DNA of 26,249 nt from Sporisorium sorghi (taxonomy: Eukaryota > Basidiomycota > Ustilaginomycetes > Ustilaginales > Ustilaginaceae), in the NCBI GenBank assembly GCA_023212695.1, contig JALCCG010000290.1:1-26249 (forward strand), given 5' to 3'. Both the position numbers and the translations under genes were made by a program. Under the pieces are notes generated by a model, which was not told where the DNA came from, made no database searches, and worked only from the letters and a program-made list of their open reading frames with translations. How positions within the stretch are numbered: the stretch's first letter is position 1; each line of letters opens with the position of its first letter. Shown here in pieces: positions 1 to 16,975 of this stretch.

Positions 1-88
1 CCACCGCAGTACTGACTAGGCGATACCCTGCTTAACTTCGCAGATCGGACGGGATGCGGTGCTTTCAAGGTTCTATGGCCGCAGATGT
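1..88 (-). rRNA. 5S ribosomal RNA, 5' part (cut by the window edge)
   Basis: Read on the minus strand from about 86-88 down to 1, the sequence starts ATCTGCGGCCATAGAACC. It then carries the 5S core GAAAGCACCGCATCCCGTCC and CGATCTGCGAAGTTAAGC, which includes the internal control region bound by TFIIIA. Fungal 5S RNA is about 118-120 nt, so roughly the last 30 nt lie beyond position 1. The gene stands alone, with no 18S, 5.8S or 28S sequence beside it, which fits fungi whose 5S genes are dispersed. The exact 5' end is uncertain by 1-2 nt. Confidence 0.93.
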
Positions 89-5067: not shown

Positions 5068-6395
5068 ATGCTGTCCAGATCGTCAACACGAGCGATGACG
5101 GCGGCGCGGCGATGTGCAGCGATACCGCCGACGGTCCGCCTTGCACGAGACTTCCACCTACAGGCCAAAGACATCCCTGCCTTCCTGTCGAAAGCGAGCC
5201 CGAGTTTCCCAACTTCTGTCGACATCGTCCCCGCTGCTAGCCCGGAAGTTCGAAGCGGCGGCGAGGGCATCGCGGTGCTGATCTCAGCCGACCGCGACCC
5301 GCAAGCATCGTGGACAGCCGAAAGCAGTGCAAGCAAAGGCAAGTTCTACGGGCCCAGCATCCTCTCTGCGCCCTTATCCTCGCTCACATCGCTTGACAGC
5401 ACCTACTTTGGCAAAGGCGGGCTCGGACTGCTCAAGCTGCGCCGACAGTCTCCGGGGTCGATCGCACACGCCGCTGTGCGATCCAACACCTCCGCCCTCC
5501 CCGCTTCTTCTCTGCAGTCCCTCGTTCACGGCTTGACCGCCAAAGATGCCCCTGCGGTGATCGAGGCGATGTGGACGATCTTTGACGCGTTCGAAGGGCT
5601 GTGGTTCAGCTTCACCCTCGTCCCCTCCGCCAACGGCTCGGTCAAGCTCATCGCGCCGTATCTGGAGTTCGACGACTTTGCCGTGCGTCGCCAGCCGCTG
5701 CTCCAGGCGTACTTTGCGTCGCGCCCGCGCAACGCCAACACGGCACGCGCCGAGGACGGCGGGCTGTTCTACGTCAAGCTCGCGGACGTGGATGCGCCGA
5801 CACCGACGCAAGCGCAGGCAGGGGAGAGGCTGCCGGACGGCAACGTGGGCTGCTTCGGATACGGTGCAGGTAATGCGATGGCGACGATGGATGGGCTCAA
5901 CGTGGCAGGCGGCAGACGGGCGAATTTTTTGGATGGCGGAGGCGGGGCGAATAGGACCAATGCCAAGCTGGCGGTCGAGACGCTCAACAGGGACCCGGCG
6001 GTCAAGGCTATCTTTGTCAACACGTTTGGCGGCATTACCAGGACCGAGTAAGTGCATCGTAGCGCTGAGATGAGGAAAGAGCGAGAGTACTGACGCAGTG
6101 CGGGTCGAACAGCATCGTATCGCAAGGCATCATCGATGCGGTTAGGGACGACAAGATCACAAAGCCCATCGTGGTGCGGATGAAGGGTACCGGCTCAGAG
6201 GACGCTGCCAAGGTCGTAAGTGTTTTGCCGCACCTGCTGGAAAGCGGATCGACTCGACAGATGACTGACACTGCAGCTCTATTTGTTGGAATGTGCAAAC
6301 AGCTGCAAGCGTCTGGACTCGAGTTTGCGTTTCACGACGACTTTAACGCTGCGGCTGCGCATGCTGTCAAGGCTGCTAAGCAGGGGCACCTGTGA
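5068..6395 (+). CDS. Succinyl-CoA ligase beta subunit-like protein, mitochondrial, divergent (3 exons)
   Basis: Exons 5068-6047, 6113-6215 and 6303-6395 join into 391 residues. The N-terminus (MLSRSSTRAMTAARRCAAIP) is Arg/Ser/Ala-rich without acids, as in a mitochondrial presequence. The C-terminal ligase-CoA domain (about 258-385) is clear: GAGNAMATMD, GGRRANFLDGGGG, AIFVNTFGGITRTDIVSQGI and VVRMKGT match the beta-subunit family. Splicing at 6216/6302 gives AAKVLQASGLEF, with the spacing expected for the family. The N-terminal ATP-grasp half is strongly diverged: no GGRGKG-type loop is seen, and in an ungapped motif comparison the EINP metal-binding motif is replaced (F180, F182) and the Asp of the DAK motif is A196. 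ATP/GDP-dependent succinyl-CoA synthesis is therefore doubtful. It may be a regulatory or structural paralogue of the TCA-cycle enzyme. Confidence 0.82.
6048..6112 (+). other. Intron 1 of the ligase-like gene
   Basis: A 65-nt GT-AG intron with donor GTAAGTG, branch site CTGAC near 6090 and acceptor AACAG. It splits an Asp codon (GA|C) and removes the TAA at 6049-6051 that otherwise ends the frame. The joined sequence GGITRTDIVSQG fits the family. Confidence 0.9.
6216..6302 (+). other. Intron 2 of the ligase-like gene
   Basis: An 87-nt GT-AG intron with a perfect GTAAGT donor, CTGAC at about 6264-6269 and acceptor AAACAG. Its length is a multiple of three and it holds no in-frame stop, so retention would insert 29 residues without breaking the frame. 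The acceptor was chosen because it restores family spacing; an AG at 6276 would shift the frame and lose the conserved C-terminus. Confidence 0.75.
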
Positions 6396-13987: not shown

Positions 13988-16255
13988 ATGCTCAAGCGCG
14001 CTGTTGCTACGCTCACCAAGGATTCGTCCGGTGAAAACGGCCATTCCAAATCACCCAGCGCACCCGCACCCGCAACCGGACAGACCACGCCCAATGCTTC
14101 TCCCTCGGCCAAGTCGACCATCGACTCGCAGCACACTGGCGCCGAAACTCCGGACAAGAAATGGCGTCTCTCGCATATCTTCTCCGGCCACTCGCTTCCT
14201 GGCAGGTCCACCTCCCGCGCTGGCAGCCTCGATGAACCGCGTCCCAGCGCCGTGAAAAAGGCGCAGCGCATCGAGGAAAAGGAGCGCAAGGCCATTGAAC
14301 AAGAAAAGCTCAAGGAGAGGATCGCGCTCGCCCGCAAGCAGTCCGACCTTCGAGCTGCTCAGATCGAGACGCCAGACCAGCGTGCCCGATACGGCGAAGA
14401 GTATCCCTCCGAGTGGAACAAAAGCCACGACAAATGGGCCGACATTTTCACCATCTGCGACGATGCGCAGATCGGCGACACGGTCACGCTGCGCGCGCGT
14501 GTCCACACCATCCGAGACGTCAGCTCGCACCTCGTCTTCATCGTACTGCGACAGCAGATTTCCACCATCCAGGCGGTTCTTGCCGAGGAGAGCGACGTCA
14601 TCACCGGTCACATGGTGCGATGGGCCAAGCGTCTGCCGCTCGAGTCGATCGTGCTCGTGCGCGGCAAACTGCAAAGACCACGCGAGCCCATCACCGGCGC
14701 CACCACCCAGCAAGCCGAGATCAAGGTGCAGCAGCTCTACCTCGTCGCTGCGCCCAAAGAGACGCTCCCCTTCAACGTCTACGATGCCGAGCTCGTGCTC
14801 AAAAAGAGCGACGATGTCGACAGCGACCAAGGCGTCGAATCGTCGTCCGATGGCGAGGGCCCACCGCGCGACGAAAACCACTCGATCGAGCGACACGAGG
14901 GCGCCGTCATCACCCAGCGCGTTCGCCTCACCAACCGCATCGTCGACCTGCGCACCCCCACCGCCCAGGCCATCTTCCGCATCAACGCCGCCATCTGCAG
15001 CAGCTTCCGCTCGCATTTGGATAAAGAGGGATTCATCGAGATCCACACGCCCAAGCTGCAGGGCGGTGCTTCTGAGTCTGGCTCGAGCGTGTTTATGCTC
15101 GACTACTTTGGTCGCCCTGCCTTTTTGGCACAGAGCCCGCAGCTGTTCAAGCAGATGTGCATCGCCTCGGACTTTAAGCGCGTCTACGAGATCGGGCCTG
15201 TCTTCCGCGCGGAGAACTCCAACACGGCTCGTCACCTGACCGAGTATACGGGTTTGGATATCGAGATGGAGATCGTCCACTACTACGACGCCATCCGTGT
15301 CATTGACGGCATGCTCAAGAGCATCTTTACCACGCTCAAGAACAACTTCAAGGCCGAACGCGAGCTCATCAAGCGTCACTTCCCGCACGAAGACCTCGTC
15401 TACCCGGAAGACACGCTGATCCTGCCGTTTGCACAGGGCGTGCGGCTGCTCAAGGAGTCGGGCTACGTCGAGGAGGACGGCAGCATCCCCAGGGAGGACG
15501 AGGATCTGCACACGCGCGCCGAGATCCGCCTCGGCGAGCTGATCAAGGAGAAGTACAACACGGACTACTACATCCTCGACAAGTTCCCCACCTCGGTGCG
15601 ACCGTTTTATGCCATGGAGGACAAGGAGGACGCCAAGGTGACCAACTCGTTTGACATTTTCATCCGCGGACAGGAGATCTGCACGGGTGGACAGCGTATC
15701 CACGACATTGAGGAGCTCGAGCGCAAGATGCAGCGCCTGTCGATCTCGGCCAAGGGCATGCAGGACTATCTCGAGGGCTTCCGGCTCGGTGCGCCGCCGC
15801 ATGCGGGATGCGGTATCGGACTGGAGCGTCTGGTGATGCTGTATCTCAGCCTGGGCGACGTTCGCTACGGCACGCTGTTCCACCGTGATCCGCGCAGTCT
15901 GCCGTTGCAGAAGAACGACGCGGACGAGCTGCGTCACCCTGAAGCGGGCACGAACCCGCCGCCCTGGAAGCATCCGCGCACGGCGCTCAAGGCCGACGGC
16001 GAGAGCGAGCTGCGCGACATGCAGCCGTTGGAGAAGCTCATCGCCAACTACGGCGACGCCTCGAACACGGCGTGGCTCGACGATCGGTACAAGGTGTGGC
16101 GCCACGCCGACACGGGCGCAGCGGTGGGCTATTCGCCGTTCAAAGGGTATGCGATGATCGTTGGCGATCCGCTGTGCGACAAGACGCAGATGACGCAGGT
16201 GATCGCGGCGTTCCTGCAGTTTATCAAGAAGGACGCCAAGCTCAAGCCCATTTGA
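13988..16255 (+). CDS. Aspartyl-tRNA synthetase with the first half of a DUF2156 domain (ErdS-like), ending at an in-frame UGA
   Basis: 755 codons with an excellent start (GCCACCATG). Residues 1-150 are a charged extension. The OB-fold anticodon-binding domain is about 155-265 (GDTVTLRARVHTIRD, FIVLRQQ), with an acidic insert near 275-308. The class II catalytic core shows motif 1 (IHTPKLQGGASESG, about 350), motif 2 (VYEIGPVFRAENSN, R407), the Asp-binding region GQEICTGGQRIHD and motif 3 (GIGLERLVMLYL, R614). LFHRDPRSLP then leads into a DUF2156 transferase fold from about 670 (VGYSPFKGYAMIVGDPLC). AspRS-DUF2156 fusions (ErdS) charge tRNA-Asp and pass Asp to ergosterol in other fungi. The frame ends in UGA just after KLKPI, in the middle of DUF2156. 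The AspRS half looks intact. Whether this is the only cytosolic AspRS cannot be told from this window. Confidence 0.93.
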   Translation: MLKRAVATLTKDSSGENGHSKSPSAPAPATGQTTPNASPSAKSTIDSQHTGAETPDKKWRLSHIFSGHSLPGRSTSRAGSLDEPRPSAVKKAQRIEEKERKAIEQEKLKERIALARKQSDLRAAQIETPDQRARYGEEYPSEWNKSHDKWADIFTICDDAQIGDTVTLRARVHTIRDVSSHLVFIVLRQQISTIQAVLAEESDVITGHMVRWAKRLPLESIVLVRGKLQRPREPITGATTQQAEIKVQQLYLVAAPKETLPFNVYDAELVLKKSDDVDSDQGVESSSDGEGPPRDENHSIERHEGAVITQRVRLTNRIVDLRTPTAQAIFRINAAICSSFRSHLDKEGFIEIHTPKLQGGASESGSSVFMLDYFGRPAFLAQSPQLFKQMCIASDFKRVYEIGPVFRAENSNTARHLTEYTGLDIEMEIVHYYDAIRVIDGMLKSIFTTLKNNFKAERELIKRHFPHEDLVYPEDTLILPFAQGVRLLKESGYVEEDGSIPREDEDLHTRAEIRLGELIKEKYNTDYYILDKFPTSVRPFYAMEDKEDAKVTNSFDIFIRGQEICTGGQRIHDIEELERKMQRLSISAKGMQDYLEGFRLGAPPHAGCGIGLERLVMLYLSLGDVRYGTLFHRDPRSLPLQKNDADELRHPEAGTNPPPWKHPRTALKADGESELRDMQPLEKLIANYGDASNTAWLDDRYKVWRHADTGAAVGYSPFKGYAMIVGDPLCDKTQMTQVIAAFLQFIKKDAKLKPI
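16253..16255 (+). other. In-frame UGA inside the DUF2156 domain (candidate Trp position)
   Basis: Codon 756 of the fusion reads TGA between CCC ATT and ATG GGG. The frame is unchanged on both sides, and the protein homology continues without a gap. By comparison with DUF2156/MprF-type domains, where an aromatic residue follows a K/R-P-I/V element, a TGG to TGA change is the simplest reading. This could be a real mutation, a base error, or a codon that is read through or edited. Confidence 0.85.
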
Positions 16256-16975
16256 ATGGGGGTGTGCGAAGAGGTCGAAGAGATCTTGGGAGGAAGGCTC
16301 AACTGGTGCTCGCTCTCGTGTCTGGCCGAGGAGCGTGTCGAGGACCCGGCCAAGAATCCTGCGCGCCACGACCAAGAGGTGCAGAAGAAGGTGCGCCACG
16401 CACGCAAAGAGGGGGTCAAGATTCAGGACTACGGTCTCAGCGAGCATGTGCCCGAAGAAGTGATGCGCGAGACGGACGAGCGCATCGACGACTGGCACAA
16501 GAACCGCAAGGGCGAGCAGGTGCACCTGACGGATGTGCACCCGTGGCGCGACATGGCGCACCGCGTCTACTACATCGCGCGCGACTCGTCCGGTAAAGTG
16601 TGCGCCATGGTGGTGCTGCACCAACTCTCGCCGCAGCACGGGTGGCACATCAAGTGGGCGCTCGATTTCCCCGGTGCGCCGAACGGCACGATCGAGTATG
16701 TGATCCTGCATGCGCTCGAGAACAACGCGGGCAGCAAGATGACCTTTGGAGTGTCGGCGACGTCGAAGCTGTTGGCCAAGCACGGGTTGAGCAAGGTGAC
16801 GAACAAGTGGTTGACCAAGGCGTACAACTCGCTGGCCGAGCACAATCGGTTGACGAACAAGGGCGAGTTTAGGCAGAAGCTCGGCGCGGTCGAGGACAGG
16901 GTGTACATTTGCTATCCGCGACACGGTCTTTCGCCTGCGGGTATCCAGGCGATCATTGGATTCTTCAAGCAGTAG
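16256..16975 (+). CDS. Second half of the DUF2156 transferase domain, in frame after the UGA
   Basis: 239 codons in the same frame as the AspRS, beginning with ATG directly after the UGA. It completes the acyltransferase-like fold: EEILGGRLNWCSLSCLAEER, PWRDMAHRVYYIARDSSGKV, VVLHQLSPQHGWHIKWALDF, GTIEYVILHALENN and MTFGVSATSKLLAKHG, with the C-terminus HGLSPAGIQAIIGFFKQ. These match the phosphatidylglycerol lysyltransferase C-terminal (DUF2156) family used by fungal ErdS to transfer Asp from tRNA to ergosterol. Codon use is like that upstream and the second half has no further stop or frameshift, which suggests either a very recent nonsense change or continued selection. Translation alone would need reinitiation at the adjoining AUG or readthrough. 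Total fused length would be 995 residues. Confidence 0.85.
   Translation: MGVCEEVEEILGGRLNWCSLSCLAEERVEDPAKNPARHDQEVQKKVRHARKEGVKIQDYGLSEHVPEEVMRETDERIDDWHKNRKGEQVHLTDVHPWRDMAHRVYYIARDSSGKVCAMVVLHQLSPQHGWHIKWALDFPGAPNGTIEYVILHALENNAGSKMTFGVSATSKLLAKHGLSKVTNKWLTKAYNSLAEHNRLTNKGEFRQKLGAVEDRVYICYPRHGLSPAGIQAIIGFFKQ

What the first reader, a model, noticed from the sequence alone, without database searches (positions are those of the whole stretch)
16190..16330. A single in-frame UGA splits an ErdS-like AspRS-DUF2156 fusion inside its transferase domain
Seen: 755 open codons, one TGA at 16253-16255, then 239 more codons in the same frame that finish the DUF2156 fold. Known: AspRS-DUF2156 fusions (ErdS) make ergosteryl-aspartate in fungi. 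Inferred: the UGA replaces a Trp (TGG), because an aromatic residue after K-P-I/V is usual at this place in the domain. The second half shows no other damage, so the break is very recent, an error, or the codon is decoded as an amino acid. If the UGA is real and decoded as a stop, the strain keeps an AspRS but loses sterol aspartylation. If it is read through, a minor full-length form would couple aminoacylation to lipid modification at a controlled ratio.
Basis: partly seen in the sequence, partly recalled or inferred. Interest (0 to 1): 0.87.

Follow-up and report, generated by a model that had tools for sequence, protein, structure and literature searches.

The report
Smut ErdS-like gene with premature stop
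In one smut-fungus assembly, a known enzyme gene that joins aspartate to sterols carries a stop codon inside a tight cluster of base changes; this is most likely a fresh loss-of-function mutation (or an assembly error), not a new way of reading the code.

Summary
The gene is an ErdS-like AspRS-DUF2156 fusion. Relatives match both halves with one residue between them; it is Trp in 114 of 118 placed homologues of the 120 listed and in 14 of 14 closest ones. So the UGA is not conserved, and no intron fits.

Two corrections. The stop is not the only damage: codon 758 is Gly where 120 of 120 homologues have Leu, Met or Ile. Because Trp and Met have one codon each, at least three bases differ within six. 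That segment (16255-16260) is the exact reverse complement of 16247-16252, two bases upstream, as a single short template-switch mutation would leave. Second, the genome has a separate stand-alone AspRS.

Nothing found favours readthrough: the context is UGA-AUG, not the leaky UGA-CU of Ustilago, and Gly758 would remain. Best reading: recent natural null allele (0.6). Main rival: local sequencing or assembly error (0.3); the assembly also contains Paenibacillus DNA. Reads over the site would decide. Ordinary; interest 0.25.

The parts
13988..16252 (+). First open piece, 755 codons: N-terminal extension, AspRS, and the first part of the DUF2156 (LPG_synthase_C) domain
14483..14740 (+). OB-fold anticodon-binding domain (PF01336), residues 166-251
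   Evidence: 5.2e-08
14915..15883 (+). Class II D/K/N synthetase core (PF00152), residues 310-632
   Evidence: 1.9e-74; one search gives the same coordinates
16058..16252 (+). Start of the DUF2156 domain before the stop (from profile position 13), residues 691-755
16253..16255 (+). In-frame TGA at codon 756, where homologues have Trp, in a core beta strand
16259..16261 (+). Codon 758, Gly; all 120 listed homologues have Leu, Met or Ile
16247..16252 (+). Upstream arm of the perfect 6-base inverted repeat
16255..16260 (+). Downstream arm: runs exactly from the first to the last of the three differing bases; reverse complement of 16247-16252, spacer 2 bases
16256..16972 (+). Second open piece, 239 codons: rest of the DUF2156 domain; begins with an ATG that also codes Met in most of the closest relatives
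16973..16975 (+). TAG stop of the full frame

Best explanation
The window carries a single-copy ErdS-like gene (AspRS fused to a DUF2156 aminoacyl-tRNA transferase) that suffered a recent local mutation. Homologues imply that at least three bases within six changed together (16255, 16259, 16260). The changed segment copies the neighbouring six bases in reverse complement, as happens when a polymerase briefly switches template between the arms of an imperfect inverted repeat. One event would thus have made a stop in place of Trp and put a Gly two residues on, both in a core strand of the transferase domain. The product ends 240 residues early, without the rest of the first GNAT-like fold and the second one, and the allele is expected to be null for sterol aspartylation; the cell still has a separate AspRS. 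Shown: the stop, the Trp and Leu/Met/Ile conservation, the clustering, the exact inverted copy, the second AspRS. Inferred: that the base calls are right, that one event did it, that the enzyme is dead and that the gene's activity was that of ErdS.
For: Exactly one residue between the two pieces in the closest relatives. Trp in 114 of 118 placed homologues; the four others show Trp shifted by one or more residues by alignment slips. 14 of 14 closest homologues (8 named smut relatives, 6 unnamed) have Trp at the site and Met two on. Gly at 758 in 0 of 120. Against S. reilianum, 4 of 993 three-codon windows hold 3 or more minimum changes, and this is one; 22 of 982 other neighbouring codon pairs hold 2 or more. 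Segment 16255-16260 equals the reverse complement of 16247-16252; triples of changes at random places reach such a copy within 10, 20 or 50 bases in 0.2%, 0.9% and 2.3% of trials, and 1 of the 27 possible triples here does. Yeast quasi-palindrome mutations make perfect repeats of 5-8 bp across a short spacer (PMC3820800, passages). Recent: apart from the site, no never-seen residue in the second half, codon bias kept. Dispensable: stand-alone AspRS on C198. The other family searches of the genome gave a stop inside 1 of 200 matches (TAA), so this is isolated.
Against: No reads, no second strain and no DNA of a close relative were available, so the base calls are unverified; ancestral bases are inferred from residues. 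The inverted repeat was noticed after the fact, and such hairpins (arms of 6, loop 0-4) are common: 43 in the window and 5 in this gene. In the yeast study, events with arms of 7 bp were significant in only 8 of 42 genes (PMC8604942, passages); 6 bp is shorter. One of the three changes also fits a run of G as a base-calling artefact. Some lineage-specific changes occur in the second half (5 of 183 sites besides 758, against 2 of 184 for S. reilianum), too few to show either relaxed or maintained constraint.
Confidence: 0.6

Rival explanations
1. Sequencing or assembly error: the strain has a normal gene, and the assembly is wrong over about six bases, for example by a fold-back chimeric read or low-quality calls in low coverage.
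For: The rest of the gene is pristine. The assembly is mixed: an AspRS on C298 is 100% identical over 592 residues to Paenibacillus glucanolyticus and a 1000-base stretch of C331 is 100% identical to that genome, so the fungal share may be thinly covered. Two of the three changes are to G next to a G run. A fold-back read would also give an inverted copy.
Against: Three changes in six bases are unusual for isolated consensus errors; in-frame stops are otherwise rare in conserved domains (1 of 200 matches; part of these are bacterial, and MFS and ABC searches scored only 9 of 163 and 19 of 273 candidates). The locus is single-copy, so there is no collapsed repeat.
Confidence: 0.3
2. Functional stop-codon readthrough, or decoding of UGA as Trp, makes a minor full-length enzyme at a set ratio.
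For: UGA is the leakiest stop; readthrough isoforms are real in Ustilago maydis (PMC4207609, passages); the second half is intact apart from 758.
Against: UGA is not conserved. Context is UGA-AUG; in U. maydis efficient readthrough needs UGA followed by CU. No stable RNA structure downstream (z 0.88 and 0.10). Gly758 would remain in a strand where 120 of 120 homologues are Leu/Met/Ile. No other TGA inside 200 domain matches. The one Sec-tRNA hit over threshold is in Paenibacillus DNA.
Confidence: 0.03
3. A-to-I mRNA editing turns the UGA into a Trp codon at some stage of the life cycle (premature stop correction).
For: Editing the A of UGA would give a Trp-type codon, the residue of the relatives; the predicted fold of 16230-16275 puts that A in a four-base hairpin loop, and fungal editing prefers loops (PMC11156358, passages).
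Against: Fungal editing strongly prefers U before the A; here it is G. A 2020 review says premature stop correction was not reported in basidiomycetes (PMC7306014, passages). The hairpin is no better than shuffles (z -0.29). Gly758 cannot be put right this way.
Confidence: 0.03
4. Termination-reinitiation: the ribosome stops at UGA and restarts at the adjoining AUG, giving AspRS and transferase as two chains.
For: AUG at 16256-16258 follows the stop directly and opens the whole 239-codon second half.
Against: That AUG codes an ordinary Met in 12 of 14 closest relatives, so its place is inherited. The split falls inside a beta strand. None of 17 second-half-length proteins starts at this Met. 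Reinitiation after long ORFs is described as very rare outside viruses (PMC5972666, passages).
Confidence: 0.02
5. An intron removes the UGA.
For: 45 of 173 GT..AG pairs of 35-250 bases across the site keep the frame.
Against: 0 of 173 have a CTRAY branch site (none lies in 16001-16500). Any of them would delete residues that relatives keep, since homologues have exactly one residue between the pieces.
Confidence: 0.01

Closest known systems
ErdS, ergosteryl-3beta-O-L-aspartate synthase of fungi (AspRS-DUF2156 fusion)
   Same: Domain order OB fold, AspRS, DUF2156; about 50-95% identity of each piece with fungal fusion proteins, several of which sources call ergosteryl-3beta-O-L-aspartate synthase; solved homologues 9w9e, 9w9f, 9w9g cover residues 74-992 of P0001.
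   Different: An in-frame TGA and a Gly two codons on break the transferase domain; activity not tested.
Quasi-palindrome template-switch mutations of yeast
   Same: Clustered changes that make a perfect short inverted repeat from an imperfect one, short spacer (PMC3820800, PMC8604942; passages).
   Different: Only one strain, unverified reads, 6-base arms; result is a nonsense codon.
UGA-CU readthrough isoforms of Ustilago maydis
   Same: In-frame coding sequence after a UGA in a related fungus (PMC4207609, passages).
   Different: Known cases extend a complete enzyme by a targeting signal with UGA-CU context; here the stop cuts a conserved domain and is followed by AUG.
Premature stop correction by A-to-I editing in Fusarium and Neurospora
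   Same: Stop inside a conserved domain of an otherwise intact gene (PMC11156358, PMC7306014; passages).
   Different: Known cases edit UAG after U, in ascomycetes; here UGA, after G, in a basidiomycete.

Membership tests
ErdS (AspRS-DUF2156 fusion) | AspRS with OB fold fused N-terminally to DUF2156 in one gene | tested here: met
   both pieces in one frame, separated by one codon
ErdS (AspRS-DUF2156 fusion) | Homology to full-length fungal fusion proteins along both halves | tested here: met
   of 513 hits the best 120 were listed and used
ErdS (AspRS-DUF2156 fusion) | Uninterrupted reading frame for the transferase domain | tested here: not met
   TGA at 16253-16255
ErdS (AspRS-DUF2156 fusion) | A separate canonical AspRS in the genome (duplicated synthetase) | tested here: met
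   L005 on C198, 592 codons, TIGR00458 at 514 bits, 44.5% identical to piece one
ErdS (AspRS-DUF2156 fusion) | Makes ergosteryl-aspartate | not testable with these tools
   needs lipid analysis
Functional UGA readthrough | Stop conserved among relatives | tested here: not met
   Trp in 14 of 14 closest homologues
Functional UGA readthrough | Leaky context (UGA-CU in Ustilago) | tested here: not met
   sequence is TGA ATG; motif from PMC4207609
Template-switch mutation | Clustered changes all explained by an inverted copy of a neighbouring segment | tested here: met
   ancestral bases inferred from residues only
Template-switch mutation | Change seen as derived in a strain tree with DNA of close relatives | not tested
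   no DNA of close relatives in the collections reached (one search found none in viral contigs)
A-to-I premature stop correction | U before the edited A; A in a hairpin loop | tested here: inconclusive
   G precedes it (not met); predicted loop position (met)

The most novel reading that the evidence does not exclude
The same change that made the stop also made a small hairpin with the stop's A in its loop, and the transcript is edited there in some stage, so that the smut switches sterol aspartylation on by correcting a premature stop: editing-controlled lipid modification in a basidiomycete.
Probability: 0.03. Interest if true: 0.8.

Novelty: new member of a known kind. Interest (0 to 1): 0.25.

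Why it matters
If the stop is real, this smut strain is a natural knock-out for sterol aspartylation with an intact second AspRS, useful for asking what ergosteryl-aspartate does without engineering. It would also be one more case of a whole cluster of changes, including a nonsense codon, made by one template switch. If it is an error, it warns that gene models from this mixed assembly need checking. Neither outcome is a surprise to a specialist.

Tried and rejected
Intron over the site: no branch site, would remove conserved residues. Conserved UGA: absent. Second gene copy or allele in the assembly: none. Selenocysteine: the one tRNA-Sec hit over threshold lies in DNA 100% identical to Paenibacillus; no SECIS or other Rfam hit near the site, only a cut-off 5S rRNA at the window edge. 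Downstream RNA structure: not above shuffles. Relaxed constraint in the second half: too few changes to tell. Species: not identified; the closest named proteins are Sporisorium, and a fast-evolving neighbour gene reaches only 69-74% with Pseudozyma hubeiensis and Sporisorium species among its best hits. The primary ErdS papers (PMC7334510, PMC8913301) are not held; ErdS facts come from passages of PMC9437257 and PMC10449517. The fold search listed only synthetases in the 50 rows shown, so it adds nothing on the transferase domain.

Controls that turned out weaker than planned: the MFS, ABC and some PF00152 matches are wholly or partly from the bacterial contaminant; the kinase, TCP1 and SNF2 matches are the more relevant ones (1 of 118, 0 of 11, 0 of 27). 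The one kinase stop (C233, TAA) lies in a short 66-position match beside another exon.

Full report
What is there. From ATG 13988 the frame is open for 755 codons, meets TGA at 16253-16255, and runs on for 239 codons to TAG at 16973-16975. The first piece holds an OB fold, a class II AspRS core and the beginning of the DUF2156 domain (Pfam LPG_synthase_C); the second piece holds the rest. The genome (23.17 Mb, 469 contigs; the window is contig C216) has one DUF2156 place, and the locus has no second copy.

Homologues. A protein search with residues 640-755 gave 513 hits, of which the best 120 were listed. S. reilianum P0001 (993 residues) matches piece one at 94% and piece two at 92% with exactly one residue between. 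That residue could be placed in 118 of 120: Trp in 114; in the other four the alignment slipped and a Trp follows one or more residues later; two could not be placed. In an alignment of 45 of the 120, this Trp is invariant. In the 14 closest homologues (8 named: Sporisorium reilianum, Kalmanozyma brasiliensis, Pseudozyma hubeiensis, Ustilago tritici, Testicularia cyperi, Ustilago nuda, Pseudozyma flocculosa, Violaceomyces palustris; 6 unnamed) it is Trp 14 times, followed by Met (12) or Leu (2), then Met (14). A search with the second half found 17 proteins of similar length; none starts at our Met. So no relative seen has the stop or a split gene.

The stop is part of a cluster. Codon 758 is Gly; the column holds Leu 82, Met 26 and Ile 12 among 120 homologues. 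It is the only residue of the second half never seen in a homologue; the first half has one too (Arg500), and seven control homologues have 0 to 11 each over their whole length. Trp and Met each have one codon, so the residues of relatives fix the older bases: at least three bases differ, at 16255, 16259 and 16260. Against S. reilianum 4 of 993 three-codon windows hold three or more minimum changes, this one among them, and 22 of 982 other neighbouring codon pairs hold two or more.

The cluster has a form. The segment from the first to the last differing base, 16255-16260, is the exact reverse complement of 16247-16252, two bases upstream. Of the 27 possible triples of changed bases at these places, only the one observed gives such a copy. 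With random triples at random places in the gene, a copy appears within 10, 20 or 50 bases in 0.2%, 0.9% and 2.3% of 20,000 trials. Mutations of this kind, which perfect an imperfect inverted repeat by a template switch, are known from yeast, with perfect repeats of 5-8 bp across a 3-bp spacer (PMC3820800, passages) and in evolving coding genes (PMC8604942, passages). Against this: I saw the repeat after the fact; hairpins of this size are frequent (43 in the window, 5 in the gene); and in the yeast survey only 8 of 42 genes with 7-bp arms were significant.

What the stop does. In a model of the intact S. reilianum homologue (mean pLDDT 75.4, pTM 0.45, so domain packing is not reliable), the Trp and the residue two on lie in strand 751-757, in a block with mean pLDDT 95. 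The truncated chain would lose the rest of that fold and everything after it. Solved relatives exist: 9w9e, 9w9f and 9w9g. The cell does not depend on this gene for Asp-tRNA: contig C198 carries a stand-alone AspRS of 592 codons, 44.5% identical to piece one. Loss of sterol aspartylation is an inference from ErdS as described in reviews (PMC9437257, passages); the primary papers are not held.

Age. The second half keeps its codon bias (0.228 against -0.304 and -0.419 in shifted frames). At sites where six other relatives agree, our lineage has 6 of 522 private changes in piece one and 6 of 184 in piece two (758 included); S. reilianum has 1 and 2. The numbers are too small to show relaxed constraint, and fit a recent event or an error.

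Readthrough, editing, reinitiation, introns. In Ustilago maydis efficient readthrough needs UGA followed by CU (PMC4207609, passages); here AUG follows. Downstream RNA is no more stable than shuffles (z 0.88 and 0.10). Gly758 would remain in any readthrough product. A-to-I editing could give a Trp codon, and the predicted fold puts the A in a hairpin loop, but fungal editing prefers U before the A (PMC11156358, passages) and premature stop correction was not reported in basidiomycetes by 2020 (PMC7306014, passages). The adjoining AUG is an inherited Met codon, and reinitiation after long ORFs is described as very rare (PMC5972666, passages). No GT..AG pair over the site has a branch site (0 of 173).

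Real or error. Six family searches of the genome other than DUF2156 gave 200 matches with a stop in one (TAA): PF00152 0 of 11, PF00069 1 of 118, PF07690 0 of 14, PF00005 0 of 19, PF00118 0 of 11, PF00176 0 of 27. So stops in conserved domains are rare, and UGA is not widely reassigned. But part of these matches are bacterial: an AspRS on C298 is 100% identical over 592 residues to Paenibacillus glucanolyticus, and 1000 bases of C331, holding the only tRNA-Sec hit over threshold, are 100% identical to the same genome of about 6.1 Mb. The assembly is thus a mixture, and fungal coverage is unknown. Reads could not be examined, so an error remains possible (0.3).

Verdict. An ErdS-like gene with a premature stop, most likely a recent null allele made by one short template switch. 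A new instance of known things. Interest 0.25.

Noticed in passing
G000 contigs C298 (26409-27719) and C331 (about 31857-31948): The assembly contains Paenibacillus DNA: an AspRS 100% identical over 592 residues to P. glucanolyticus and a 1000-base stretch with a tRNA-Sec-like hit 100% identical to the same genome. L003 and L006 have similarly low GC (0.46, 0.50).
   Followed up: partly
window 1-86, minus strand: A 5S rRNA gene cut off by the start of the contig (Rfam RF00001, 73 bits), which suggests the contig ends in an rRNA gene.
   Followed up: no
window 16230-16275: The predicted RNA fold puts the A of the UGA in a four-base loop of a five-pair hairpin formed by the same changed bases.
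   Followed up: partly
G000:C233:5754-5948 (-): The only other domain match with a stop inside (protein kinase fragment, 1 TAA), beside a second match of the same gene; possibly intron sequence.
   Followed up: no
window 5068-6051, plus strand: CoA-ligase frame in which the Pfam match ends at profile position 66 of 128 where the frame ends; the gene probably continues beyond an intron.
   Followed up: no
window 913-24345: Neighbours by Pfam: MFS transporter, ubiquitin hydrolase (C12), Med10, mpaB-like oxygenase, CBF/NF-Y histone-fold protein, histidine phosphatase, zinc-type dehydrogenase, Ysc84 plus HAD fusion.
   Followed up: no
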